Assembly (NCBI RefSeq): GCF_019649055.1
Contig: NW_026570393.1
Span: forward strand, 144,053 to 208,052
DNA: 64,000 nucleotides
Direction of reading: 5' to 3'
Source of the DNA: Paramacrobiotus metropolitanus
Lineage: Eukaryota; Tardigrada; Eutardigrada; Parachela; Macrobiotidae
A model generated the notes under the pieces. It was not told where the DNA came from. It did not search any database and saw only the letters and a program-made list of their open reading frames with translations. Within the stretch, counting starts at the first letter, position 1; each line of letters opens with the position of its first letter. Shown piece after piece: positions 10,456-63,300 of the stretch. The position numbers and the translations under genes were made by a program.

Positions 10456-13400
10456 TGGCGCTCCTGGGTGGATACCTTTAAACTAGCCGACTTCTTAATA
10501 AGTTCTTTTCCATGCTCGTACGGATGTTTTCGGATAGCAACGAATTTTGTGACTCTGTGGCTGATTATTTTCTCGGACTTACCGCTACCACAAGTAAGTG
10601 TACTGACCTTTGTCTTTTCTACCGGTAAAAGCGAAACTGGCTACAAACGGCAAATCTGCCAAGCAAAAAAGTAATCCGAGCAAAAACGCAACGGATAAGA
10701 AGCAGCCTACATTGCACAGGCGAAATAGTGATAGTGAATTAACTTCACCAACGCAAATCGGACACACATTACGAAGCCGTGGTCCAGCAGACGATTCTTG
10801 GGAGTTACCTCCTTATCGCGCAAAAAAAGCAGCAAAAATGTCTACTACAGACGAGAAAACAAAAGAAATGTCCGAAGGTTTTCAGAAACTCAGCATGGTG
10901 TTAACAGAGGCACCGGCGAGTGGGCCCCTGTTGAACGTTGACAAATTCGACCCCGTGAAACACAGCGCCACCGAATGGCTGAAAGAATTTGAGGAAGCAT
11001 GCAGTCTTTCGAACTGGATCGAAGCCACACGTATAGCACGATTTGCATTTTATCTTGCTACCGGCGCAGCCAAGCAGTGGTATGAGCTGACAAAAATTAA
11101 TCACACCACTTGGACAATACTGAAGAAAGCGTTTCTGGCAGAATTCGTCCCTGAAGACGAAAAGTGGCGCATTTTTGAGAAATTAACAAAGCGAAAGTTT
11201 AAGCCTTAAAGCGGGACACTTGTCGTATATTACTACGATATCATCCATTTTTGTCAAAAATATGACAATACAATGGACAACAAGGTCAAAATGCATTACT
11301 TACTGCAGGGATTAGACTCGCACTTACGCAATCATATGGCACTGTTAGGCCTGCAGACACCAGAAGAATTTCTTGAAAAATTTAAGAAATTTAATTTTGA
11401 TCATACAGCAGAGAGCGGAACCGCTTCAAATCTTGCTGTGTTAACAGTGGCCGCTTCAGAGCCCGAAGCACCGGCAACCAGCTCGACACCGGCTCCTGCT
11501 CCGGCACCTGCTGCCGGAGCATCAGTTCGGCAATTTACCATTCGCTGACGTTATGAACATTAATCACGCTGAAATTAATTATAACTCTGCTTCACCCATT
11601 ATATGCAATGTGAAACTTGACGAATACAAAACTTCTGCTGTTATTGATTCTGGCGCTGCTGTTAGCATTATTGATTACAGTTTACTTGCTCATCTGAAAA
11701 ATAAAAATATTTCGGTTTACACTGGACCTCCTTTGCGTGGTATTACAACGCAATTATTGCAACCTGTAGGCACGGTTCACGCCGAAATTGAAGTAGCCGG
11801 CCAGTCACAGACGATACCATTAATAATTATCGAAAATTATGAAAAGAAATTACTACTCGGTAACAACTACTTAGTGACAGACTTAGTTATTAATTACTAA
11901 ACTCGGTCAGTACATTCATTTCAACATAGCGGTACCACACCATTTACCAGTCACAAACAAACCCGGTTAGTTGCACAGAGCAAAGTGCACATTCCAAGCG
12001 GACATACAGCGCTTATACCGTGTGAAATCGCTAACGCTAACATTTCACACGGAATACCGGTAAACCAAATCGATTTTCTGATTACACCGTCGCATCGCTT
12101 GCGTTTTCATAAATAATTGTACGTATCACATTCGCTTACCCGTACGAATGGCAGCGCATGTTTCGTCTCGGTAGCTAATTTCGGCAACCGCAGCCAAGTG
12201 ATCCCGAAAGGGTACACTATCGGCTCAGCTGAACCTGTCGTCGTTGAAACAATTGACACCCAGTACAGTAGTTGTAATGAAGAACTGGAGAATTCACTTG
12301 CGCAAATCCAGTTCGGTAGCGGAGTTACTGCTACGCAGCAGTTACAAATCAAAAATATTCTCCGCAAATACCCAGACTGCTTTACCACAAAAGAACATCC
12401 GATTGGCACAATAGCGTCAGCCGAACACCGTATCAATACCGGCGATAACATGCCCATTTCCCGCGCACCTTACCGCCGTTCCTGGGCGGAACGTATACTG
12501 ATCAAAAACGAGGTGCAACAGATGCTTGAAAAGGGAATCATATCCCAATCTCCGAGCCCTTGGAGCTTCCCGATTGTACTGGTCACAAAAAAAAGACGGT
12601 ACAATACGATTCTGCGTTGACTTTCGCTCGCTTAACGCGATTACCAAGCGGGATGTCTATCCTATTCCAAGGCTTGACGACGCACTAGACCGCCTTAGCG
12701 GAAGCCTTTACTTCTCTTCCATTGACATGCTTAGTGGCTATTGGCAAATCCCGGTACACTCGACTGACTGCGAAAAAACAGCGTTCATCACTCCTGATGG
12801 ATTATATCAATTCAATAAAATGCCGTTTGGATTGTCCAACGCTGGTGCGACTTTCCAGCGAACAATGGACAGAATTCTCTCGGAATTCCGTTGTGATTTT
12901 TGTATTGTGTACATAGACGATGTACTAATTTTTTCAAAAAGTTTTACTGATCATTTGCACCACTTAAATTTAGTATTTGCCAAATTGTCCGCAGCCGGCG
13001 TGGTCATTAAGCCATCAAAGTGTCTGTTCGCGACCGACGAGGTCACTTATTTGGGACACATTATCTCAGCCGCTGGTATACAACCAGACTCGGCTAAATT
13101 AACGGCTGTGCAACTGTACGAAGCACCGACAAATGTAACTGACGTAAAATCCTTTCTCGGGCTATGCTCGTATTTTCGAAGATTTGTGAAAAATTTCGCA
13201 CAAATAGCTGAACCCTTACTCAGCTAACTAAAAAGTCAAATCAGTTCATATGGAGCGATGCACAATGGGACGCTTTTAATAAATTGAAATTTTCATTAAT
13301 AAACGCTCCATTACTGGCAGATTACGATCACACGGCAGTGATCGAAGTCCACACAGATGCCTGTGGGTATGGCCTTGGTGCTTGCCTGATCACAAAGGCC

Positions 13401-15175
13401 GATGGTGTCGAACGCGTAATAGCTTATGCGAGCCGAACTTTACTGCCTGCTGAAACTCTGTACACCACGACCGAACTTGAATGTCTTGCTGTGGTTTTTG
13501 CAATAAACAAATTTCGACCATATCTACACGGTCGGTATTTTAAGGTAGTAACTGATCATTGCGGCCTCTGCTGGCTCATGACAAAGCGCGAATTAACAAG
13601 CAGACTATCCCGTTGGAGTTTACTGCTACAGCAATACAACTTTGACATTGTATATCGAAGCGGGCTGAAACATCAAAACGCTGATGCGCTTTCACGCCAT
13701 CCGGTCGAACGCGCCGACTGTGACTCACATGATGAAATTGAAAATGTGCTAGTTTATACTATTACGAACTTCTGCATTACCGATCAGCAGCAATCTGATA
13801 AGCACTCTCAACGAGTGATCGAGCTGATCAAGCGTGGCGACAGCGCTAAAAGCAAAAATTACCGCTACGAAAATAATGTACTCTATCGTAAAACGATTGA
13901 GGACGGCGGTGAGAAACTACTGGTTGTCGTACCAGATGGTTTACGCATGGCTATACTTCAAGCCTGCCACGATGCGCCCACTGCCGGCCATCTCGGATTC
14001 TGGAAAACGTGGCACCGCGTACACACGCGCTACTGGTGGCCGCGCATGCTGCGACATGTACGCCGGTACGTACAAGGTTGCGTACCCTGTCAGACACGAA
14101 AGTTACCGCAACAAAAACCGAGTGGCATCATACAAGCTGCTCCCGTAGGAACACCATTCGCAATGGTTGGCGTGGACGTGTTTGGTCCACTACCAAAGTC
14201 ATCCAAAGGGAATCAGTACATTGTAGTCGCTACAGATTACTTGTCCAAATGGGTTGAAACTAAAGCGATATCCGCTCAGACCGCACTGACGGTCGCGTCA
14301 TTTCTCATGATTCAGGTATTTCTACGGCACGGGGCCCCACAAACCCTTGTCTCCGACCAAGGAGGACCACTCTTATCTGCTGTGACACAAGAAATACAAA
14401 GTACTTGCAACGATGCTTACGTTTTACACTAATGAAAAGCAGAAAAACTGGGATGATTGTCTTCCTTACATTACTGCAGCCTACAACACGGCTAAACAAT
14501 CATCTACGGGATATTCCCCATTCTACGTGTTGCACGGACGCGAGTGCAGATCACCAGTTGACGTGGCAATGGCTGCACTACCAGCCGCAGATATTGCGAA
14601 CATGAAAGAGTACACACAATCCATCGTGCAAAATATTACTGATATACAAGAACTTGCCCGGCAGAATATTCTTCAAGCACAGAATGGATATTTACTATCA
14701 GCAAAAAACAAGCGGACAGCCCGAGAATTCAAAATCGGCGAACTAGTCCTTTTGTGCACACCGGTGACACCGGTTGGTTTATCACTAAAGCTTGTCTATC
14801 ATTTCCACGGTCCATACCGAATACTTAGCAGACCAAATAAACTGAATTATACCATTGAGTCTGTAACAAAGAAAAACCGAGGCAAAAATACGCTCACAGT
14901 CCATGTGAAGCGACTCAAACTTTTTACAGAACCGTTTACGGAAAAGGACCTCGAAACAGATAGTGATGGTACATGGAATGTCGCCGTCGACGAGCGGATG
15001 TGGAGGAAGAAGCCGTCCAACGGCCTGCAGCAACACCGGAAATACTTCCTGCCAGCCCTCAACACGAACCTGATGAGAGCGAAGAGACTCCACGTACCGC
15101 ATACAATCTACGTTCCCGGAAACCGCGATCCTCCTAACGGGAAATGCCGGGACGGCATTGTTTTAACAAAGAGAC

Positions 15176-15400
15176 TGTCATGTTAGCTGATTCACTTATA
15201 TGACTAACCGCTCTTGTTTCTTGTTAACTTTTCTATAAGTCATTAAGGTTTGTTACTTTTACTTTATATCTGATTTCCTATCCCTTTCCATCCTTATTTT
15301 CTCTGTGTATATAATCAACTTGTACTGAGCGTACAAGTCAGTCTGGTGTTGAATTGCATTAAACTACGGAAATTCCAAATGTTATACGAGTAACATTTCA
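15176..15400 (+). repeat. Right LTR of the gypsy element
   Basis: The LTR is 225 bp and preceded by a short purine-rich tract (ACAAAGAGA) that could serve as polypurine tract. It carries the same TATA-like box and hairpin as the left LTR. Confidence 0.93.
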
Positions 15401-15659: not shown

Positions 15660-16739
15660 TTATTCATCGAACGTTACCAAATACTCTTCCAGACTAGGTG
15701 GCTCCAGATCAAAATACCGGCTAGCCTGATTGTGGTGTAGACAATTATGACAGTTGATTAGTATGACAGCCATACGATATAATTTGTTGATGGGATTAAT
15801 GTACATCCGCATCTGTTTTTTAGAATCAAGAAACGCAAATTTAGAAACAACCTCTTTAAAGCCCCACTCGACAGGCTCCCTTACCCGAGACATAGCTTTA
15901 TTTAATGCTTTTTTTCGACGATCATTCAGTACTTCTACTTTTGAGAATGGCTTCTTCACAAGTTCTCCTCTTCCGTATCCGGAGTCACCATAAAGACAGA
16001 ATCTGTCAGGACCAGCAAACGTCGTAAATTTTTGCTGCAGCGCGTCCAGAACCTTGCTGGAGGTTAGGACGGTGCTGTCATGCATGGAGCCTCGGTGTCC
16101 GCCGTACAAACTGCCGATCATCCCATTTGGCAGTAACACAGCTTGCCACTTGGACCAATGGTGACGCTTGTGTCCACTAAAACACTGGCGCTGATAGTGT
16201 TTAGGGCGGCTGATTGGACGTGCAGTCCCGTCGATGAAGCCAAAACATCCGCGTAAAACACCACCTTTTGCGGCTATGGCGCCAGCAAACATAATGAAAT
16301 CCTCCACGGTAAGCCAGGTCTGATTCCATTCTTCCACAAGCCATCTAAATGTCTTGTCGATGTGGTTTAGCACCCACATAAAAATTTGGCATAAACTGCT
16401 TTCGGAACGTCCAAAAAACATACGCAGATCAATCCACCGTGAAGGGTACACAAAACGACGCAGCAAAATGCACAGAGCTTCTACCCCGGACACACGGTCA
16501 CGGGTTGTTGTGATGACGACATCAGGGATCAAGAGGCGCTTTCGGAGATCTTCGATCTGGGGCATGGTAAAGCGAAAATACCGCCAGCTTTCTCGTTCAG
16601 TAAAAACTCTGGGATCAAAAGCGAAGGGAATCCAGTCATCGCGTAGCTTCCGCTTTTTTAGTATGCATAAGAGCAAAAGAAACCTACGCCTAGAGATCAA
16701 TTTGCGTTTGTAGAGCAAAAAAAGATAAACGAATTTCAT
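15660..16739 (-). CDS. Harbinger DDE transposase (HARBI1-like, DDE_Tnp_4)
   Basis: This is the nuclease that cuts and rejoins the transposon. The frame opens upstream to 16820, but the Met at 16739 (MKFVYLFLLYKRK) is the better start because the 81 extra bases are a tandem GATTTCCAGAATAC repeat; this gives about 359 aa. The N-terminal half is a helix-turn-helix-like region with LCILLRRFVYPSRWIDLRMFFG. The catalytic core shows the first Asp in GFIDGTARP, then HGHRGSMHDS-type GGHRGSMHDS, the second Asp in YGDSGYGRG, and the Glu in EPVEWGFKEV, so the DDE triad is present. The frame is unbroken and of normal family length. It could still be active in trans on related elements. Confidence 0.88.
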   Translation of the reverse strand: MKFVYLFLLYKRKLISRRRFLLLLCILKKRKLRDDWIPFAFDPRVFTERESWRYFRFTMPQIEDLRKRLLIPDVVITTTRDRVSGVEALCILLRRFVYPSRWIDLRMFFGRSESSLCQIFMWVLNHIDKTFRWLVEEWNQTWLTVEDFIMFAGAIAAKGGVLRGCFGFIDGTARPISRPKHYQRQCFSGHKRHHWSKWQAVLLPNGMIGSLYGGHRGSMHDSTVLTSSKVLDALQQKFTTFAGPDRFCLYGDSGYGRGELVKKPFSKVEVLNDRRKKALNKAMSRVREPVEWGFKEVVSKFAFLDSKKQMRMYINPINKLYRMAVILINCHNCLHHNQASRYFDLEPPSLEEYLVTFDE

Positions 16740-16815
16740 TTTCAAGATTTCCAGAATACGCGCAAAGATTTCCAGAATACAGAAAGATTTCCAGAATACT
16801 CGCAACGGGTCAGAA
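16740..16815. repeat. Short tandem repeat GATTTCCAGAATAC
   Basis: The word AGATTTCCAGAATAC occurs three times (about 16746-16762, 16765-16781 and 16784-16800) with short spacers, just upstream of the transposase start. A fourth partial form CAAGATTT precedes it. Confidence 0.75.
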
Positions 16816-17156
16816 AGCAATCAGAAATTCAGTCACCAGCATATCCTCTGGCATGCGTGTCAATTTTCCACAAACGTGATCAACACAACATTTAAATATC
16901 AGAATAACACTTTCTAAAAACGAATCTCAAAAGTGTCAGTTCCAGATTTACAGAGACAAAAACACAAGACAATAATAATTACAAAAATACAAGACAGTTA
17001 ATGGTGTTGTAAGTGTAATATGCAGCTTGACAGGAATGAAAAGTCAATGGTTTGCATAAGCGTTGTGTTAAGTGAGGCCGTGCAAAATCATGATTACGAT
17101 TTTTTTACCATAACCGTATGTTATGTGGTAAGAGATGGTTAAGGTATGGCTATGGT

Positions 17157-20521: not shown

Positions 20522-20569
20522 TGAAGCAATTGAGAAGGTACCACAAAATTCATCAGTACTTACCAGTCC

Positions 20570-21700
20570 AGGTGGTGTGTTTTGGAGGAACCGTCACACG
20601 GGGAACTACCCGGGCATTTTTGACGAACCCGCCGTACTAATGTATGGCGGGGCCGTAAATTTTGACCCGGTCCGGAAATTTTGACCGGCCCAGGTGGCGT
20701 GTTTTGGAGGAACCGTCACATGGGGAACCACCCGGGCATTTTTGACGAACCCGCCATACTAATGTATGGAGAGGCCGGAAATTTTGACCGGCCCAGGTGG
20801 CGTGTTTTGGAAAAACCGTCACACGGGGAACCACCCGGGCGTTTTTGACAAACCCGCCCTACTAATGTATGGCGGGGCCGTAAATTTTGACCCGGTCTGG
20901 AAATTTTGACCGGCCCAGGTGGCGTGTTTTGGAAGAACCGTCACACGGGAACCACCCGGGCATTTTTGACGAACCCGCCGTACTAATGTATGGCGGGGCC
21001 GTAAATCTTGACCCGGTCCGGAAATTTTGACCGGCCCAGGTGGCGTGTTTTGGAAGAACCGTCACACGGGGAACCACCCGGGCATTATTGACGAACCCGC
21101 CATACTAATGTATGGAGGGGCCGTAGATTTTGACCCGGTCCGGAAATTTTGACTGGCCCAGGTGGCGTGTTTAGGAGGAATCGTCACACGGGGAACCACC
21201 CGGGCATTATTGACGAACCCGCCATACTAATGTATGGAGAGGCCGTAAATTTTGACCCGGTCCGGAAATTTTGACCGGCCCAGGTGGCGTGTTTTGGGGG
21301 AACCGTCACATGGGGAACCGCCCGGGCATTAATGACGAACCCGCTGTACTAATGTGTGGAGGTGCCGTAAATTTTGACCGGCCCACGTGGATAATTTATA
21401 AAAAACCGACACGCGGCGAACCACCGGGGCATCTTTCGCGAACCCGCCATACAAATGTATAGAAGGTCCGTTTTTCTTAAGACTCGGTCCCGAAATTTCG
21501 CCCGCCCCGGGTGGATCGTTTTTGAGGAACCGACATTCGGCGAACCACCGGAGCATCTTTCGCAAACCCGCTATACAAATAGATTAAAGGTCCGTTTTTT
21601 ATGACTCGATCCCGAAATTTCGCCCTCCCCGGGTGGATCGTTTTTGAGGAACCGACAAGCGGCGACCCACCAGGGCAGTTTTTCCGAACCCGAACTATTT
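20570..21700 (+). repeat. Satellite-like tandem array, ~122-bp unit, about ten copies
   Basis: The unit contains GGCCCAGGTGGCGTGTTTTGG, AACCGTCACACGGGGAACC, CCCGGGCATTTTTGACGAA, CCATACTAATGTATGG and the doubled word AAATTTTGACC. The GTGTTTTGG landmark appears near 20575, 20697, 20803, 20923, 21043, 21165 and 21286, with more diverged copies near 21387, 21510 and 21637. Most intervals are 120-123 bp; two are about 101-105 bp because one AAATTTTGACC half is missing. Similarity declines towards the right end, the pattern expected of unequal exchange with older units at the edge. Small open frames within it are not genes. Confidence 0.93.
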
Positions 21701-53430: not shown

Positions 53431-53881
53431 TGTTAGAGGCACGACAGCCTGCGTGATAGATACGCCACTTTGCGTATGCGTATCACTGCACACATGCTGA
53501 TTCGCCCTCTCTTGTACGTACGTGAGTGGCTGCGCTGCACTCTCCGCCTATGCGGATACACCGCGGGCGCACTCACTGAGCATACTTGCTCTCTCGCTCC
53601 TCTCTCTCGCTGTATGACTCAGCGTATATTCGCTCGCGTTGGATACGAGTCCAGTCTGCGCACTCACATTCCATGTGTCTGGACAGCGTGACGCCGTTGC
53701 CGCCAGCACATTTCTTTCTCTACATTTCATTACGCTCTAGAACTAGCTCGCAGCAACTTGACTTGCTGATTTCTGCCAGACACTGGCCTTTGTGGTGTTT
53801 TTCCCCGCATTCACGCGGCATTTGCTCCACTTTATTTGTACAATAAAGTCACCTGTGAGCTCTCTGTGCTTGCCTGTCACA
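53431..53881 (+). repeat. Probable 5' LTR of the large gypsy element
   Basis: The candidate starts TGTTAGAGGCACGACAGCC and ends TGCCTGTCACA. Near the end is a poly(A) signal in TTTGTACAATAAAGTC, and it is directly followed by TGGTAAGCAGATCG, a TGG-starting primer-binding-like site. Without the other LTR the left boundary is a guess from the TG...CA rule. Confidence 0.45.
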
Positions 53882-54685
53882 TGGTAAGCAGATCGTCTGG
53901 TTTTTCGGTTTATCGGATCCTTTGAGGAGACGGTAAAGGCATAACTTGCGGAGAACTCGAAGAACCCACGGTTGAAATCAGATTGACTGCGAACGCAGCC
54001 TCTGTTTCGACCTGGTCTTTGCTGTCTAGCGACTGTGGTAGCAACAGGTTGATCGCAAAAGCGATCCCTGCCACCTTCGCTTGCCCTATCTTTTGGCTCT
54101 TCCACACAAGGAGAGCACTTCGGCTGACTGCCCCAGACGGACAAACGGGAACTCCCCCACCGCAACTGACGGACCAGGCTCAGAAGGAAGCCTGCAGCGC
54201 AAGGATCCTCTCAACAATCGGGGACCTTCTCCTTGAACGGAGACCCGCAACTTTAACGGCGGAATTCGACCTCCCAACGGCGGATCACCGACCTCCACGG
54301 ACTCTACAGTAACATACGGTAAAGTCCCGGTTACAGGTCGACACAGGTCGAATCTAGCTATAATTCTTAATTCTTAACGGCTGAAATTTATTTCTGAGAA
54401 CTAGAAATAATTTTTCGATGGTAAAAACTTATTTTTCGTCGGAGAAACCGACCTAAAAAGTTACTTTACCGACCTAACGGACCACTCTGTGTAACTGACC
54501 AGAGGTCGGTCATTCACTTTGCTTTTCATTTTGACGGATTTTCCACCGTCAGAAAAATTTCTGAGAATCTAGAAATTACTTCTAACGGCTTAAATTAAAA
54601 TTTCGACCAGAAAACATCTCCGATCGACCTAAAAATAATTTTGTTTTCCCGCGAAAATAAGCGTGAAAATTCCCGAATTTCCTCG

Positions 54686-54856
54686 TGACGTCAGAACGCT
54701 CGATTTTCAGTACTTTGAGGCTAGCCAATCAGCGTGCAGGGGAAACTTCCCATAAGCTTAACATAGGCGTGAATCATCGTTTTTTAAATTTTGCACGCGG
54801 CTCGCATTCTGTGACGTAGGCAGTGAAGTGCAAGACCACTTAGCCCTGTGACGTCA
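54686..54856 (+). promoter_or_regulatory. CRE-like and CCAAT motifs in the element leader
   Basis: Two perfect TGACGTCA octamers (54686-54693 and 54849-54856), a related TGTGACGTAGG near 54811, and a CCAAT box in GCCAATCAGCG (54725-54729) lie 280-450 bp before the Gag ATG. These are bZIP and NF-Y type sites by known consensus. Their position downstream of the presumed LTR suggests an internal promoter or simply part of the untranslated leader. Function is inference. Confidence 0.5.
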
Positions 54857-55137
54857 TACTGGTCAGCACAGTAGTATAGGACGTACTCTACTGTAGTACC
54901 TTATCATACTGTACTGTACCATAGTACTGTATTGTAACGTTGTGTACTGAGTCACACACAGACACATCAACACAACAACAACAACATCAAGTCGGACCAT
55001 CCTGACCCACGGAAGTTCCTGAACCGAAAGACGTTCCTGATTCAATTGAACATCCCCACATAAGGGATAGTTCAATTTACTGTACAACAGTACAAGTCTC
55101 TCGTTGGTTCCACTTGAACCGACCTGACCCGACAACA

Positions 55138-58100
55138 ATGTCGAACCCGAAGGAAAATGAATACGCCCGAAAGTTCAACACGGACTATTCGCGGCGTCTG
55201 ACCTCCAACGCGCCGTATGCACTACGGCACTCCGGTCAGGATAAAAGTCAGCCGTCATCAACGGACTCAACGAAGTCGGCCGAGGCAAGGGAGAAGCGCA
55301 ACGAGCGGATCCTCCTCGCCGATTCCAACCCAACGTCCGATGACAGCTTCGAGGACGCCCACGACAAGACGTTCCTCGAGCCCCGAGCTGGCTTAGCAGC
55401 CCCGTCCCACCCGACCGGGGGGGAAATGGAGAATCTGCAGGCTGAGACCACATTGTCTCATGCCGAGGCGGAACACCCACATGGTGTACCGACCTCTACG
55501 GACTCAACAGAAGGACTTCAACTGAGCTCACAGAAAGCTCAGGAGTCGGTAACGACTACGAAAGTCACCGACGCCGGACACACATCACCCAACCAGACGG
55601 ATGACGTGAAGAGGTCGACATCGCCCAACCTGGGTAGAGCGACTTCACCGACCTCGAAGGTCGGAGAGAAGCAACCGATAACGGAAATCGGTCAAGTCCA
55701 ACCGACCACAGAAGTCGGTAGGGCTTCACCAACCTCTAAGGACGGTCAACGGAAACCGACCTCGGAGGTCGGTTATCCTCAACCGGAGGTCGGACCTCAT
55801 CTGACAACACAAGTCGCAATTGAGGTCGGAAGAATACAGCAATCACCAACCAAGGAAGTTGGCCAAGTCCAACTGACAACAGAAGTCGGGAGGATTTCGC
55901 CGACCAAGAAGGATGGAAGTCCACCGACCAAGGAGGTTGGTCAACAGAAGCCGCCTACTGAGGTCGGACCTCACCCGACAACACAAGTCGGAACTGAGGT
56001 CGGGCAACTTCCACCGACCTCAAAGGTCGGACAACAGCAAGTCGGTCAAGTACAACCGACCTCCCTGGAAAAGAAGCCAGTCGATACAAGGTCGGATATG
56101 GATATCCAGTGGCCTAAACTACCGGCCAAAACGGGAGAAACCGAGGCCCCGCCACGAAGTGGACCTCACCCGGCTGGATCACCGACCAATATACCGATGC
56201 CTAACGAGAAGGCTATCTCACCGCTAAGTCGACCTTCGCCAACAGAAGGCAGGTCGACCCGAGCAACAGAAACTCAACCGAAGGTGAAGTCGCCAACAAG
56301 TCGACCTGTCGACCTAAAGAAGAGGTCGCCACTCATGTTCGAACTTGGCGACTCGGGTAGTGGAACACCACCACCCATGGACGACGTATTTGACACGACA
56401 CAAGTGTCACGTCCCAGCAGCAGGGATGGATTCTTCCGAACGCCGGTGGCACCCCACTTGGGTAACCATAGGTACCAAGCAAGCACGCTTGAGTACACGG
56501 CACGGAAGTGGATTGCATCCACACCTCCAGAAAAGATCGAAGACGTCGATCGACTCAGGAAACGATGCCAGGATTTGATAACTCAAATCGTCCTGGCCGA
56601 CCAAATCGTTAACTCCACGGAAAGTCAGATGTCACGATCGGAGAATACCCATAAGCTTGAACGAAGGCGATGGGAAAAAGAACTCGCTGAAGCCAACAAT
56701 GGCATAGCCGCTCAACAGCGCCGGATAGAACATCTGGAAAGTCACCTCAAGAGGTCCGACAACCCATGTCGGTACGACCCTGAAGAGGTCGAGCGACTCA
56801 GAAGTACACTTGCGACGTCGGTGGAATCAGTCTTCGAACTGAAAAGACGGCTTGCCACCGCGGAAAAAGACCTGGCTGACACACAAACAGCCTTGGTCGA
56901 ATCGGAACTGGCAGCAGGGACATTCCACCAACAGCTTAATCAAGCCAACGAAGAGGCTGAAGTGTACCGGAACGAGGTCGACAGATACATTGTCGAACTC
57001 AAGCAGGCCGACGACGAGGTCGACCGGCAAAGACACCGTATCGAACAACTCGACACAGAGATGGAAATTCTCTTGGCCAGGGCAGGACGACAGTTAATGG
57101 CTCACTATAGCCAGCAAACTGCCTTACCTGACCGAAGTAGAGCCATCACCGACCTGGAACAAGCAAACGCCCAACTGGTCGACCAGGTCTACGGACTTAA
57201 CGATGTGCTGAAAGAGGAACAGAGACTCCGAGCACAGCTGGAACACAGCCTGGCGGAAGCCCAGAAAGTGTATGAAGCGCAACAGAATCGCATCACACAC
57301 TTGGAAACCCGCGAGAACGACCTGTATAACTATGGTCTGGACGCGGATAAATATATCGATGACTTAAATCGATATATCGACGAGATGACCACGTATACCG
57401 ACGACTTGGATACGGAGGTACGCTGTCTCCAGGAGGAAACGAAACACCTGGAACAATCCAGGACGGAGCCTCCATCCTACAGGACTTCGATGGCAACGGA
57501 CTTCCACTTTGAACCGTCGCAAACAGTCCGAGATATCCTGTGGGACATTAAACCTAAAGAGGAGAAGAAGGAACAGAACTTCTTCGTGGGCGTGGTGACA
57601 ACTAACCCGCTCATCGGAACTCCTCCGCAGCAACAGCCTCTGCCCCACCGTCCAGAACCGGAACGGAATACGTCGACTGCGGCACCACATGTGCCAACGT
57701 CAAACGTGCCGACAACGACGACGGCCACGTCAGGTACCTACACTAGTACCACGTATGCAACACACACATCGATGCATGCGCCAGCGCCCACCACGTCCCA
57801 CCCGAATGGACCAGCGCCTAGTCAATGGGGCGCAGGACGGCGACTGGGAGAGCGAACAAGCTCACATCCCAACATGGACGACTTCGGACGCTTAACGATA
57901 AGCGACTCCGATTATCAGCGGACACGAGCTAGGTCATACAATAATGACCTTCCTCAAGGAGGACGAAGCGGACAACCGAATCCGGAACGCCCTCCCGCCG
58001 ACTACCCACAAGACTCGCAGAACGTGCCTCGGTTCCGACCAACAGAAGGTCGGGCACCACCGAGAAGGCCGTTCAGAAGTCAGCATGGAAGGGTGAACGA

Positions 58101-59904
58101 CCTTCCACCGGGATTCTACCAACAGCCACAACGGCCACCACGAGCACCAGCTCCTCAGCCGGAACCGTACCCGGCTGGATACCCAGACCAACAAGGTCGG
58201 GCATACCCAGACCAACAAGGTCGAGGATATCCACAACAACAGAATTATGGATATCCGGAGCAACAGAACCAGTATTACCCAGACCAACAAGGTCGGGGAT
58301 ACCATGCGGAACAAGGTTGGGAAGCAAACCCTCCCCCACCACCTTATGGCGCGGACACCCAACAAGCGGCTAACCGGGCATTTCAGGAAACTATGATCCG
58401 TGTATGTGCCCGCGGACGCAAGCAGAAACTGCCAGAATTCGACGGTGACCATAACAAACTTGAAGGATGGTTAAAACAAATCCGTCGATTCTACGCGGAA
58501 GCACAAGAGTGGCATGAATCAGACTTAACATTCATGACCGACCTCATTTCAAGACTTGAAGGCCAGGCCGCACAATGGCACAGGGACACCGCCGGTAGCG
58601 AACCAGCCGGAGGATGGCCAGTCAACACTTGGTTGACTAAGTTCGAAGAGCGGTTCGGAGACAAGAACAAGGAAATCAATGCCGTAACCGCCATGGCCAA
58701 ACGAAAGTACCGCTTTGGACAAGAGACGCCGGAGCAGTACTATGACGCCATGATGAACATAAAGTCCCGATGTGACACCATCACGGACCAGATGGCACTC
58801 TTCCATCTGAAAGATAACATTCACGAACCCAAGCTACGAGAAGCCTTGGAAATTCGTATGCCGGCGACTCCGGTAGAACTGCGTGACTACATACGCCAGT
58901 TCGTAAACGGAAAGGAGATGTACGACGTGGCGAAGGGATCACGGGATACCGACTATGCCCGGGTCCGAGCAACAACGCCGACACCAGCTCCTTTACCGCA
59001 GGCACCAGTACAAACAGTGTACCAGCCATACATGATGCCGGGATATCAAAGTCCCTCGGCAACATACGTGCAACCGACCACACCGATAACGCCACCAGCG
59101 CAAATGATGCCGGTCCAGCAACCGACCTGGGCAGGAGTGGCAGCTGTCAACTTGGCAGCACCCCAACCAGCAGCCGGAGCCCCAGTAAACAACTACGGAG
59201 GCCAAAGTCCTGGCTCTGGAAGTAACCAGAACAACGGAAGTTCTGGATACAACCAAAACCCAAACCAGGGATACTCCGCATACGGTCAGAGTCCAACACA
59301 AGGATTCGGCGGCGGAGGCTACGGTCGCGGAAAAGGACGTGGCGGCGGAAATCGCGGCCGCGGTAACTTTAACCGCGGCGGAGGCGGAAACCAACAGGGT
59401 AACCGACCTTCCCAAGCACAACAAGGTGCTCGGCAGTTTACGACTTATGCGGATAAGATGGAACAACTGTTCCTTCAGTGGACGCTGGCGGACAGCTTTA
59501 CTTGCCACTTCTGCAAGTTCGGGAACCACCCCCAGGCACGCTGCGCGTTCATCGGCACTCGGGTGCAGGACAACCCGAATCGCCGCTGGTATGAGGATTG
59601 GCATACGCGATACCTGACGGGAGGACCGTTGGGTTCGGCCAACCCGAATTCGGCACAGATCGTGCCACCCCCGCGCCAACGCCAACAAGGAGGAGGCTCG
59701 GGCGGTGCTGGTAACGGAAACCAGCAGGCCGGCTCAGGAAATGGGTCGGGCGGAAACCGCGGGAATAGCGGTGGAGGTCAACAGGGATCTCCGGAACAGC
59801 GGCAAATGCTACCGCCACATCAGCCCTTTGGCTCGCCGTCACCCAACAATGGGCCGGCTCGGGAAACTCCTCGGGAAACGCCTAAGGTCGATGAGCCCCG
59901 GTGA
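55138..59904 (+). CDS. gag: Giant Gag-like ORF of the gypsy element (1588 aa)
   Basis: Start chosen at ACAACAATG (55138), because the frame upstream has only a non-ATG beginning. Regions by residue: 1-170 polar and disordered; about 175-315 iterated (P)T(S/T)(E/K)VG(Q/R) repeats; about 461-775 a long coiled coil rich in Glu, Arg, Leu and Gln; about 790-1060 Pro/Gln-rich with PDQQGRGYP iterations; about 1081-1271 a capsid-like gag domain (KLPEFDGDHNKLEGWLKQI, WLTKFEERFGD, PEQYYDAMMNIKSRC). Residues about 1391-1421 form an RGG/GGG-rich box, and 1456-1469 a zinc knuckle CHFCKFGNHPQARC that fits CX2CX4HX4C exactly. The tail is Gly/Gln/Ser-rich. Usual gypsy Gags are a few hundred residues, so the extra N-terminal ~1080 residues are exceptional. 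The frame is uninterrupted. Confidence 0.85.
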   Translation: MSNPKENEYARKFNTDYSRRLTSNAPYALRHSGQDKSQPSSTDSTKSAEAREKRNERILLADSNPTSDDSFEDAHDKTFLEPRAGLAAPSHPTGGEMENLQAETTLSHAEAEHPHGVPTSTDSTEGLQLSSQKAQESVTTTKVTDAGHTSPNQTDDVKRSTSPNLGRATSPTSKVGEKQPITEIGQVQPTTEVGRASPTSKDGQRKPTSEVGYPQPEVGPHLTTQVAIEVGRIQQSPTKEVGQVQLTTEVGRISPTKKDGSPPTKEVGQQKPPTEVGPHPTTQVGTEVGQLPPTSKVGQQQVGQVQPTSLEKKPVDTRSDMDIQWPKLPAKTGETEAPPRSGPHPAGSPTNIPMPNEKAISPLSRPSPTEGRSTRATETQPKVKSPTSRPVDLKKRSPLMFELGDSGSGTPPPMDDVFDTTQVSRPSSRDGFFRTPVAPHLGNHRYQASTLEYTARKWIASTPPEKIEDVDRLRKRCQDLITQIVLADQIVNSTESQMSRSENTHKLERRRWEKELAEANNGIAAQQRRIEHLESHLKRSDNPCRYDPEEVERLRSTLATSVESVFELKRRLATAEKDLADTQTALVESELAAGTFHQQLNQANEEAEVYRNEVDRYIVELKQADDEVDRQRHRIEQLDTEMEILLARAGRQLMAHYSQQTALPDRSRAITDLEQANAQLVDQVYGLNDVLKEEQRLRAQLEHSLAEAQKVYEAQQNRITHLETRENDLYNYGLDADKYIDDLNRYIDEMTTYTDDLDTEVRCLQEETKHLEQSRTEPPSYRTSMATDFHFEPSQTVRDILWDIKPKEEKKEQNFFVGVVTTNPLIGTPPQQQPLPHRPEPERNTSTAAPHVPTSNVPTTTTATSGTYTSTTYATHTSMHAPAPTTSHPNGPAPSQWGAGRRLGERTSSHPNMDDFGRLTISDSDYQRTRARSYNNDLPQGGRSGQPNPERPPADYPQDSQNVPRFRPTEGRAPPRRPFRSQHGRVNDLPPGFYQQPQRPPRAPAPQPEPYPAGYPDQQGRAYPDQQGRGYPQQQNYGYPEQQNQYYPDQQGRGYHAEQGWEANPPPPPYGADTQQAANRAFQETMIRVCARGRKQKLPEFDGDHNKLEGWLKQIRRFYAEAQEWHESDLTFMTDLISRLEGQAAQWHRDTAGSEPAGGWPVNTWLTKFEERFGDKNKEINAVTAMAKRKYRFGQETPEQYYDAMMNIKSRCDTITDQMALFHLKDNIHEPKLREALEIRMPATPVELRDYIRQFVNGKEMYDVAKGSRDTDYARVRATTPTPAPLPQAPVQTVYQPYMMPGYQSPSATYVQPTTPITPPAQMMPVQQPTWAGVAAVNLAAPQPAAGAPVNNYGGQSPGSGSNQNNGSSGYNQNPNQGYSAYGQSPTQGFGGGGYGRGKGRGGGNRGRGNFNRGGGGNQQGNRPSQAQQGARQFTTYADKMEQLFLQWTLADSFTCHFCKFGNHPQARCAFIGTRVQDNPNRRWYEDWHTRYLTGGPLGSANPNSAQIVPPPRQRQQGGGSGGAGNGNQQAGSGNGSGGNRGNSGGGQQGSPEQRQMLPPHQPFGSPSPNNGPARETPRETPKVDEPR

Positions 59905-60177
59905 CTCATTCGACCTGCGACATCCCACCGAACCACCGGACAAGGATAACCCTACTAACCAACTTCACTTTAACCGGAGAGAATCGCCCATACCCACAAC
60001 AGAGGGTGAAGTCATCCAACGGTTGGATGCCTTGGTCAGACAACTAGGTCTGGACCATAACAGTACGGCAGAAGAATTCATGCACGCATTGATGGCTTCA
60101 ACAGATGAGCCACAAGGGCCAGAACAATGGCAGAACGACTCGGAATTTTTGTCAACGACGGCAAAATCGAAGTCCGG

Positions 60178-60345
60178 ACCGGAACGCAACGAATGCCCGA
60201 CCTACCCGACCCAACGCATCAACTTGGCGCTGGAACGTCAGAGGCCGGAACGCAGGGATTGCCCGGAACGGCCGACCCAACGCCTCAACTTGGCTTTGGT
60301 ACGTCGGAGGTCGGAACGCAAGAAATGCCCGACCTACGCAGCACG
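60178..60345 (+). repeat. 66-bp tandem repeat, about 2.5 copies
   Basis: The word GGAACGCA...GCCCG...CCGACCCAACGC...CAACTTGG recurs at a 66-67-bp spacing (about 60180, 60247 and 60313). Two overlapping frames stay open through it because the period is a multiple of three. It lies between Gag and the protease region of the large element. Confidence 0.8.
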
Positions 60346-63300
60346 AACAATGTGACTGCGCCGCCCGCCACAGAAAGTGACGCAGGACGGACCGGCCACG
60401 GAAGTTGGACCGGACTGCCGGTGAGAAGAAACCCAACCGAGCAGCCCAGACAAGGGCCAAGACGCGGAGGACCGGGACGCCGATTCACGCAAAGGGGCAG
60501 AAACTTCCCAATGTATCATCCGGACGCGCAACGGATAGATACGCTGCAACAATGGCAGCTATCGACCTCACCGAAGAATCGGAAGGAGAAGTCGAAATAT
60601 GGGAAACAGTCCTCTGGAAGCACAGGCACCCGCTCACTGGCTGCAGCAGGAGTCGGACCTCTCCCAGCAACAACCTCAACCGGCTAGAACAGTAGCCGGA
60701 TCTCGGACGTTCGTCAACCTTGACTACATATGGTCGCAAGTGAGGCCAACAGAAACCTCGATAGAAGAACGGATACGAGAACAAACACGACGGTTCGAAA
60801 CTCCCACCGACGTGCTGGAGGACGGAGTAGCTAACCGACCTCAGGCACATGAAGTGGTCGTAACCGAAGTGGAACCAATCCAAGGTACGCTGACGCCAAC
60901 AGAAGGCGGATCAGTCTCCTTAATTCCCGTCACACCGACTGTACGGGAAGTGACCTTCGAAAAAGGGACTCACAAGAAACCGAAGACGGTCAGAGCCTGG
61001 ACACACGCAATCCAGATCGGACCGACGCCCACCATGGCGATGCTCGACACAGGAGCAGAGACTTCGCTGATCGAACAACGATTCTGCGAACAAAACGACC
61101 TGCCAATGCAACCTCTTGGCCATTACACTCGGATACTTGGCGTAGGCGGACAAGTTGCCTTCACCGTAACTCACTGTTGCACCGTACCGGTAACGCTGCA
61201 GGGATTTACGAGCCATCACTTCCACGTTCAACCGAACAACGCGGATATCCCAGTGTTACTTGGATGTGATTACCTTCATTCCAAGTTCACCTTCGTGCTA
61301 ACGCCCATTCCTAACCCGGAACGACCTGGAGGAATGACGGTAGTGCAGTCTATCCCGATACCAGAGGCATCGGGCACGGTAATAACTGAAGCGAGGATAA
61401 GTCGGCTCGATCACCCGTCAAACCCCCCGCCCAACATTTGCCGTGACTGCCGGGATACCAACCGGACTCTGATCGAGGAGATGCAACTGCACAACGCCAT
61501 CGAAGCGTACGAAGAAAGGATACGAACTGGAAAACTACGTCCGAAGAAACGCATACTGAAGACGGCAGTAAAGTCTATCCCGATACCAGAGGCATCCGCA
61601 ACGGAAGCGGATGCCATCTTAGAAGTCCAACAAAAGTACCGGACTTGGTTTACGGGAATACAACACTTTCTCGACCGACGGACGTTGGAGATGATGGCCA
61701 CTCTCCAACAGAACGGAGCGGTGACCACGGACCAGATACAGGAAGCACAACGGACATGCGAACCTGTAGCTCTCGCCGAAGACATCGACGATGAAGCTTG
61801 GGAATGGGAAGACGAACGAGTCCCAATCCATCGGCAGTACATGGAATACGGACTTCCAGTACCACGCCCTCTGGAGATACCCTGCCAAGAACTAGGCGGA
61901 GCACTCTTCAGTTACATGCGACAAGTACAGTTGTACGGAGAATCGACTACAACTGCGTTTTGGAAACGGTACGGCGAGGACACCTCAATAACAAGGACGA
62001 TCCCCGACCCGTTACCGCCAATCACGGAACACTTTCCGAAGGAAGTCAAATTCGTCAATGACCTGAAGAAGCCAACTGAGCACACGCAAATTGGCGAAAC
62101 TGACCGACCAGAACGTTGCATAATCTGCAACGACAATATTGATGGAGTCATCCGGACGCTGAAGACCCATCATGACCTGACTTGGGTTGACGGCAGACCG
62201 TCGTCACCGGCCCCTCCGCAACCAGATCGGAAGGTGAACCTAAGCCGGAAAACTAAATCAGTAGTTAACCATTGGCTGAGCAACATAAGCTCACAGCCAT
62301 CCGACCTGGAGAAACAGGAAGGAGAAAGTCGACCGACCCAACCGACGGATACGGCCGACCTACCGACCTCAGAACTTGCAAAAGGCAGGTGCCACCGACC
62401 ACAGAAGTCGGATATGGTAAACATCCGACCTTGAAAGTGGATCAGCCATAGAGTTCGAAGACTACGATTCGGACGTCTCGGACGTACAAAGTTCGAGCGA
62501 TTCACCGGACACAGACTCCGATAACCAACCTTCGGAAGAATCCGAGGAAGAGGATGATGATGAAATTCGACCCGTCAGTACGAAACTGCAGGTCGGATAA
62601 ACCGCGGAATGACGACTCGGACGACTCATCCGAGGAGGACGAAGAACCGACCTATGACGTCCGGCTGACAAAAGCCTTGCGGTCCATCATCCACACTGAA
62701 TTCATAGTCGACCCTCCCGGAACAAACCGGACAGGAAAAGCCAGTCGATGTCGAACAACAAGCGGAACTCGAACAACTTCAAATTTTACGGGAATTTGGA
62801 GGCCAACCGGAGGAACGACCTCCGACCTCCAACCATAGTAACCCAGCAGCTGTCAACCGAACAACCGACCTCGGTTAGCAACTGACCAACGAAGTCGAAC
62901 CAACCGCGCCCACAGAAGGTCCGGATTGCAAAAGTTAACTCGATTACGGAGTTGAACTTGGGCAACAAGCACCCACAAGTCCATCATCTAGCACTGGACC
63001 CGTTCATCGACTCGAAGCCGCTAGACCGACAGGTGGTCTTTAACAGCGAGCGAGTCTCTCTCCCACCTTACTCAACGTGCTCTATCAAGGTCAACGTGTT
63101 CTATCAAGGTACGGACAGCCAAACCAATGGACCCGATGAGACCCATCTACTTCTACACTTTACGGCGGAAGCACCGACCTATCCGACCGATAGAAGCTAA
63201 GATCGAGATCCGACCTCAGATAGACACGGCCTGGATAAACATCCAGAACTTAACACATCAACCGAAGATATTGAAGAAAGGCATAAAACTTGGCCACATG

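What the first reader, a model, noticed from the sequence alone, without database searches (positions are those of the whole stretch)
55138..59904. Gypsy-type element with a 1588-aa Gag carrying a coiled coil, prion-like repeats and RGG boxes
The frame joins a normal gypsy capsid-like domain and a perfect CX2CX4HX4C knuckle to about 1080 extra N-terminal residues: disordered EVG repeats, roughly 310 residues of coiled coil and PDQQGR iterations, with RGG-rich sequence before the knuckle. Such modules in other proteins drive oligomerisation and RNA-granule condensation, so the particle or ribonucleoprotein of this element may be assembled in an unusual way. The long uninterrupted frame argues for selection on the protein until recently.
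Basis: partly seen in the sequence, partly recalled or inferred. Interest (0 to 1): 0.85.

Follow-up and report, generated by a model that had tools for sequence, protein, structure and literature searches.

The report
Giant Gag in an animal retrotransposon
A retrovirus-like jumping gene in an unidentified animal genome makes a capsid precursor several times the usual length, and the extra part, including a long coiled coil, is kept by selection in many copies, so it probably helps to build or move the particle.

Summary
The 1588-aa frame is real. It is the Gag of a Ty3/gypsy LTR element that the contig end cuts inside pol. The extra ~1080 N-terminal residues belong to the family: of 124 same-family capsid hits in the genome, 114 have the coiled coil 0.8-1.5 kb upstream, and 12 of 18 gag loci read keep one uninterrupted frame. 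One sister-lineage Gag that was read (capsid ~44% identical) has the same layout. dN/dS in the coiled coil (0.08-0.18) is close to the capsid's (0.07-0.14). Conserved instead are a ~100-residue N-terminal block, the coiled coil (residues 464-776) and a PPSY motif (13 of 13 Gags). New here: a -1 frameshift signal (GGGAAAC, 5 nt, invariant hairpin), a conserved leader, and a large third ORF with no transmembrane segment in the parts scored. The closest described design is Cer1 of C. elegans. The capsid fold is not confirmed and condensation is untested. New variant of a known kind.

The parts
53431..53881 (+). 5' LTR of the window copy, TGTTAG...TCACA, 451 bp; a 3' LTR would lie beyond the contig end
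   Evidence: start and end found by motif and by alignment to other copies
53882..53899 (+). putative primer-binding site (first 18 nt after the LTR), begins TGGTAAGCAG
   Evidence: CATGGTA occurs once in the 1.5 kb upstream of gag in 11 of 11 copies looked at; tRNA not identified
54676..55058 (+). conserved non-coding leader block with two TGACGTCA, one TGACGTAG and one CCAATCAG; 80-90% identical between subfamilies A and B in 100-column windows, against 43-68% upstream
   Evidence: 3 A and 6 B copies; no long shared frame
55138..59904 (+). gag, 1588 aa, one open frame
55138..55437 (+). N-terminal conserved block (residues 1-100)
   Evidence: dN/dS 0.13-0.18; 44-47% identical to the sister Gag
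55657..56031 (+). EVG repeat spacer (residues 174-298), variable in length, relaxed
   Evidence: 12 triplets; dN/dS of residues 101-430 0.36-0.47
56527..57465 (+). coiled coil (residues 464-776)
   Evidence: Pfam PUMA coiled-coil below cut-off at 486-540
57469..57480 (+). PPSY motif (residues 778-781), PPxY type
   Evidence: kept in 12 of 12 A/B Gags and in the sister Gag
58177..58303 (+). PDQQGR-type tandem array, 24-base unit
   Evidence: TRF; array visible in subfamily A rows, traces in B rows
58378..58992 (+). capsid (CA) domain, residues 1081-1285
   Evidence: sub-threshold DUF4939 and Retrotrans_gag matches; dN/dS 0.07-0.14
59326..59382 (+). RG/RGG stretch
59503..59544 (+). CCHC zinc knuckle CX2CX4HX4C
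   Evidence: pattern kept in 12 of 12 aligned Gags
59873..59879 (+). GGGAAAC slippery heptamer for -1 frameshifting into pol
   Evidence: 9 of 10 aligned copies; pol in the -1 frame in 4 of 6 junctions translated
59885..59916 (+). hairpin 5 nt after the heptamer
   Evidence: 12 pairs invariant in 10 of 10 copies; 71-nt segment z -2.13
60539..62434 (+). start of pol with aspartic protease (profile match about 61013-61279); later frames are in other registers, and the contig ends at 64000
   Evidence: a continuous pol stretch exists in another copy

Best explanation
This is a large Ty3/gypsy (Metaviridae-type) LTR retrotransposon of a metazoan. Its Gag carries an unusually long, MA-like N-terminal module fused to what is most likely an ordinary CA plus a one-knuckle NC. 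Shown here: the module is shared by subfamilies A and B and by one sister-lineage Gag, its N-terminal block and coiled coil are under purifying selection, and a -1 frameshift signal lies at the gag-pol junction. Inferred mechanism: the coiled coil oligomerises Gag before or during capsid assembly. The variable low-complexity segments act as spacers, the N-terminal block docks a cellular or element partner, and the RG stretch plus CCHC knuckle bind genomic RNA. Because the extension precedes CA, whose N-terminal lobe forms the outer capsomers in Ty3, it should lie outside the CA shell and form a corona. The invariant PPSY may recruit a NEDD4-type ligase (recalled function).
For: Coiled coil upstream of CA in 114 of 124 family CA hits, spacing 788-1475 nt. 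12 of 18 gag loci read keep an uninterrupted frame: eleven of 1523-1620 aa and one (C25) that runs on into pol. dN/dS by NG86, within A / within B / A against B: coiled coil 0.08/0.15/0.18, CA 0.07/0.14/0.11, N1-100 0.13/0.18/0.16. Two 7-residue (one-heptad) indels inside the coiled coil, besides single-residue ones and an 11- and a 2-residue one at its end. Sister Gag with the same order of parts, 31.6% identity over 909 columns, E 3.5e-86, PPSY kept. No conserved Met near the CA start that would give a separate short Gag (alignment). Frameshift signal. RT closest to Ty3 among solved structures, E 2.4e-63. One copy (C19) has 460/460 identical LTRs and TGCC on both sides, so the family inserted recently. 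Precedents: Cer1 Gag has a predicted N-terminal coiled coil before its CA-like domain (PMC10309623, passages); CA-NTD protrudes outward in Ty3 (PMC6525542, passages).
Against: No experiment. The CA fold is not confirmed: poor model, no Foldseek match at E 0.001, no PDB profile hit, profile hits below cut-off. The oligomeric state of the coiled coil is unknown. Cleavage by the element's protease could release the extension as a separate protein. PPxY is a short motif and could be kept for another reason. dS between A and B is saturated in part (14 of 36 pairs in CA, 2 in the coiled coil). Elements exchange segments (NC region), which can distort dN/dS. The C19 copy with identical LTRs is itself deleted: against C60 it lacks about 2.2 kb, between the RNase H part of pol and the early part of ORF3, and no integrase was matched in its pol frame. 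Its recent insertion therefore shows mobility of the family, not autonomy of that copy.
Confidence: 0.6

Rival explanations
1. The extension is a separate accessory protein made as part of the Gag precursor and cut off by the protease. It would act on RNA export or on the host, as CERV of Cer1 does, and take no part in the particle.
For: Cer1 shares Gag N-terminal exons with its regulatory protein CERV (PMC10309623, passages). The extension holds long low-complexity linkers in which a protease could cut.
Against: Coiled coil and CA evolve under similar constraint, and 114 of 124 family CA hits keep the coiled coil upstream. The third ORF has its own ATG in four of the five copies searched, so it needs no Gag exons.
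Confidence: 0.2
2. One reading: the repeats and RG sequence drive RNA-granule condensation that nucleates assembly, as the prion-like domain of Ty1 Gag does.
For: Q/P/N-rich and RG segments exist. Ty1 Gag needs a prion-like domain for assembly, and foreign prion domains can replace it (PMC10372613, abstract), so poor sequence conservation does not rule this out.
Against: The EVG and PDQQGR arrays differ between subfamilies and the EVG region has high dN/dS; the RG content is small.
Confidence: 0.12
3. The extension is a captured host gene or a chance fusion in some copies only.
For: Weak coiled-coil matches: Pfam PUMA_CC, E 1.5e-4 but below its cut-off, and a Rab-3A exchange factor in PDB, E 0.005; any coiled coil could give these. 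27 of 150 coiled-coil hits have no listed capsid downstream and were not read.
Against: Present in subfamilies A and B and in the sister Gag read; several of the 27 are short fragments with stops.
Confidence: 0.05

Closest known systems
Cer1 (C. elegans, Ty3/gypsy)
   Same: Gag with a predicted N-terminal coiled coil before a CA-like domain and CCHC knuckle(s), no MA; large 3' ORF that is not an envelope (PMC10309623, abstract and passages)
   Different: Cer1 Gag is 690 aa with three fingers, in one 2272-aa polyprotein; here 1588 aa, one knuckle, PPSY, repeats, and in most junctions read a frameshift to pol. Sequence relatedness not tested: no Cer1 sequence at hand
Foamy virus Gag
   Same: Predicted coiled-coil motifs, late domain, Gly-Arg boxes (PMC3705263, passages)
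   Different: 648 aa in the prototype virus; a CCHC knuckle is present here; the RG stretch here is small
Ty1 Gag prion-like domain
   Same: Disordered N-terminal region of Gag, needed for assembly (PMC10372613, abstract and opening)
   Different: Ty1 belongs to another superfamily (recalled); no long coiled coil mentioned in what was seen
Burro and other giant gypsy elements
   Same: Gypsy elements well over 10 kb with extra coding sequence (PMC6431247, passages)
   Different: Burro has a typical N-terminal Gag and carries MATH, BIR, BCL2-like and other domains in a 4,873-aa ORF; none of these was matched here
Bdelloid rotifer LTR elements with ORF3
   Same: gag, pol and an extra third ORF, one class called CC; gag with a typical CX2CX4HX4C knuckle (PMC5408684, passages)
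   Different: Described ORF3 types there include envelope, GDSL and DEDDy; the ORF3 here has no significant Pfam or PDB match in the stretches searched

Membership tests
Ty3/gypsy LTR retrotransposons (Metaviridae) | LTRs with TG...CA ends and target-site duplication | tested here: met
   C19 copy: 460-bp LTRs, 0 differences, TGCC on both sides; the window copy shows only its 5' LTR
Ty3/gypsy LTR retrotransposons (Metaviridae) | pol order PR-RT-RNase H-IN | tested here: met
   C58 copy, one 2254-aa open stretch; the window copy is cut before RT
Ty3/gypsy LTR retrotransposons (Metaviridae) | RT closest to Ty3 | tested here: met
   C58 copy: 4ol8 (Ty3 RT, name recalled) 2.4e-63, Ty3 Gag-Pol 7q5b 6.8e-63, next 8r0s 7e-46; solved structures only, no tree built
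Ty3/gypsy LTR retrotransposons (Metaviridae) | Gag with CA fold | tested here: inconclusive
   sub-threshold Pfam matches, no PDB profile hit, poor model
Cer1-like elements | N-terminal Gag coiled coil and non-envelope 3' ORF | tested here: met
   highest KD19 1.16 in the three ORF3 stretches scored
Cer1-like elements | three CCHC fingers | tested here: not met
   one knuckle
Cer1-like elements | spliced mRNA for the 3' protein | not testable with these tools
   only a conserved CCTTAACAG 6-9 nt before the ORF3 ATG in four copies
Foamy virus Gag | Gly-Arg boxes in place of CCHC (the contrast with CCHC is recalled) | tested here: not met
   CCHC present
Errantivirus or retrovirus with envelope | envelope ORF with transmembrane segment | tested here: inconclusive
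   no segment above KD 1.6 in the ORF3 stretches scored, but ORF3 was not read to its end in long copies

The most novel reading that the evidence does not exclude
A retrotransposon in which no envelope was found has evolved its own matrix-like module: coiled-coil stalks outside the capsid plus a conserved PPxY late motif placed upstream of CA, as in several retroviruses (recalled). Its particles would leave the cell through ESCRT in vesicles, as proposed for Arc-type capsids (recalled), with the giant third ORF serving genome export or targeting.
Probability: 0.15. Interest if true: 0.85.

Novelty: new variant of a known kind. Interest (0 to 1): 0.55.

Why it matters
Most Ty3/gypsy Gags lack a matrix part and begin with CA, and Ty3 Gag is about 280 aa (PMC10309623, passages). 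A family that keeps about 1080 extra residues under selection shows how far a capsid precursor can be extended, and gives a natural test of what a matrix-like domain does in the absence of a known envelope. A coiled coil before CA is also predicted in Cer1 and foamy virus Gag; Arc needs its N-terminal domain for capsids (start of an abstract), and that this domain is a coiled coil is recalled. This raises the question of convergence.

Tried and rejected
Host: I first took the 18S for a nematode (from recall). The SL1 pattern gave 0 matches and the cuticle-collagen family 0 (whose controls did not ring either, so it does not prove absence); the idea was dropped. Nuclear receptor domains (18 matches) point to an animal. 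The species is not identified.

Capsid by fold: single-sequence model too weak. Capsid and coiled-coil profiles against PDB gave nothing useful. PHROGs: one match of unknown function, E 0.0033, not followed. ORF3: four Pfam matches of E 0.011 to 0.2 for the C58 stretch, all below cut-off, none for the C19 stretch; one PDB match at E 0.83.

Leader as a coding region: rejected, no long shared frame in 9 copies.

Full length of the longest copies: unresolved. The C19 copy measures 17,018 bp between outer LTR ends but is internally deleted; its junction shows no evident splice pattern. The search lists ORF3 frames of 2985-3302 aa in five copies (a sixth value, 21926, is not credible as a protein). 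In C58 the frame was read over its first 1508 aa (1494 from the ATG) without N and over its last 107, not between; no 3' LTR lay in the 1.9 kb read there. If nothing else is inserted, C58 exceeds 24 kb.

Full report
What is there. The frame 55138-59904 encodes 1588 aa without a stop. It sits behind a 5' LTR (53431-53881), a putative TGG primer-binding site and a 1256-nt leader. The window is the end of a contig (C173:144053-208052, contig length 208052), so the element is cut inside pol. The part of pol that is present begins with an aspartic protease; after 62434 the frames lie in other registers. The window copy is therefore not intact, although its gag frame is open.

Family. With the whole Gag as query the genome gives 59 matches (29 of 1992 candidates scored). 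A 163-residue capsid piece gives 150 matches (150 of 704 scored): 124 at 60% identity or more and 26 at 38-45%. A 147-residue coiled-coil piece gives 153 matches (150 of 231 candidates scored), 150 of them listed. Joining the two lists, 114 of 124 family capsid hits have a coiled-coil hit 0.7-3 kb upstream on the same strand, in fact at 788-1475 nt, median 1147. The ten without lie in frames of 177-982 aa; one of them (C41:806199) has a coiled-coil hit closer than 0.7 kb. Conversely, 27 of the 150 coiled-coil hits have no listed capsid hit downstream and were not read. The 26 distant capsid hits have no listed coiled-coil match; their frames run from 269 to 1597 aa. One was read, C68. Its Gag carries the same order of parts (N-terminal block, S/T/P-rich spacer, coiled coil, PPSY, proline-rich part, capsid), 31.6% identical over 909 columns. 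The other 25 were not read, so shorter Gags in that lineage are not excluded. 20 of the 124 family frames reach 1500 aa and 39 reach 1200; one of these (3543) is a gag-pol fusion. A 147-residue RT piece gives 150 matches at 82-100% identity (150 of 1250 candidates scored). All such counts are lower bounds.

Selection. 18 in-family gag loci were read and 12 keep an uninterrupted frame: eleven of 1523-1620 aa, and C25, which runs on into pol and was cut by me at 1646 aa. The six dropped (C33, C5, C212, C68:589000-598500, C3:2492000-2501500, C65) have split or shortened frames. Nei-Gojobori dN/dS within A / within B / between: N1-100 0.13/0.18/0.16; 101-430 (EVG) 0.36/0.45/0.47; 431-470 0.14/0.22/0.16; coiled coil 0.08/0.15/0.18; proline/Q region 0.18/0.30/0.26; capsid 0.07/0.14/0.11; RG region 0.25/0.20/0.28; knuckle region 0.00/0.20/0.21; C-terminus 0.36/0.30/0.39. 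Caveats: dS is saturated in 14 of 36 A-B pairs for the capsid, copies C142 and C10 contain short stretches in another frame, and the NC region appears exchanged between subfamilies. ORF3 gave 0.17-0.36 over six pairs and pol about 0.13 over three pairs.

Coiled coil. Period 3.50, 0 of 2000 shuffles as strong; four long helices in a single-sequence model with pLDDT 72.5. Between copies there are two indels of seven residues, one heptad each, single-residue ones, and an 11- and a 2-residue one at its end. PPSY follows directly and is unchanged in 13 of 13 aligned Gags. PPxY motifs are short, and in so proline-rich a protein one is expected now and then, so the argument is conservation, not presence.

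Frameshift. Two GGGAAAC heptamers lie in tandem at the end of gag in several copies, in the X XXY YYZ register. Pol is in the -1 frame in 4 of 6 junctions translated (C3, C58, C19, C60). In C25 gag and pol are in one frame, and in the window copy gag ends in another frame, because the length of the first site differs. Ten of the 12 copies were aligned there: the second heptamer is present in 9 of 10, the first in 5 of 10. Five bases later comes a 12-pair hairpin, invariant in 10 of 10, so it shows no covariation; the 71-nt window segment has z -2.13, with 7 of 200 shuffles at least as stable.

Rest of the element. The C19 copy spans 17,018 bp, with 460-bp LTRs identical at 460 of 460 positions and TGCC on both sides. 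It is itself deleted: against C60 it lacks about 2.2 kb between the RNase H part of pol and the early part of ORF3. The C58 copy has protease, RT, RNase H and integrase in one open stretch. A third ORF follows pol (76 matches, 45 of 785 candidates scored). It has its own ATG in four of the five copies searched, with CCTTAACAG 6-9 nt before it. No transmembrane segment lies in the three stretches scored, and no significant Pfam or PDB relative was found. In C58 its frame is listed as 2985 aa, partly read. The leader block 54676-55058 is 80-90% identical between A and B and holds TGACGTCA and CCAATCAG motifs; it may be an internal promoter, a packaging signal or both (inference).

Comparison. 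Cer1 is the closest in design: 690-aa Gag, predicted N-terminal coiled coil, CA-like domain, 3' ORF that is part of CERV, which is needed for export of genomic RNA (PMC10309623, abstract and passages). Foamy Gag shares coiled coils, a late domain and Gly-Arg boxes (PMC3705263, passages). Ty1 shows that a disordered N-terminal region can be needed for assembly (PMC10372613, abstract and opening). An ostracod gypsy element has a coiled-coil extension, but at the end of pol (PMC7998251, passages). Eight searches listed no gypsy Gag of this size in the titles, abstract starts and passages seen. That covers open-licence papers only, and most listed papers were not read.

Judgement. The extension is a real, selected part of Gag. 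The most likely function is assembly and targeting through the coiled coil and N-terminal block; the repeats are probably spacers. The capsid fold, condensation and vesicle release are open.

Noticed in passing
window 54676-55058: Leader block with two TGACGTCA (54686, 54849), one TGACGTAG (54812) and CCAATCAG (54725), far better conserved than LTR or distal leader; possible internal promoter or packaging region.
   Followed up: partly
L014 6968-9991, L031, L038: Third ORF after pol: at least 1494 aa from its ATG in C58, frames listed as 2985-3302 aa in five copies; no significant known relative.
   Followed up: partly
L013, L015, L023 NC regions: Two quite different versions of the zinc-knuckle region occur across subfamilies, which suggests recombination between elements.
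   Followed up: no
L015 and L016 (C19 copy): Copy with identical LTRs that lacks about 2.2 kb including the integrase region, so it was mobilised in trans or deleted after insertion.
   Followed up: partly
window 11042-15186: A second gypsy element: Retrotrans_gag match in a 313-aa frame with a stop inside, then RNase H and integrase frames.
   Followed up: no
window 15660-16820: DDE_Tnp_4 transposase frame on the minus strand.
   Followed up: no
window 20568-21692: Tandem array with a unit of about 122 bases.
   Followed up: no
window 60179-60337: 66-base tandem repeat between gag and the protease.
   Followed up: no
G000: 147 Retrotrans_gag matches in open frames of 109-2945 aa, many of a few hundred residues: other gypsy families here include ordinary-sized Gag frames.
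   Followed up: no
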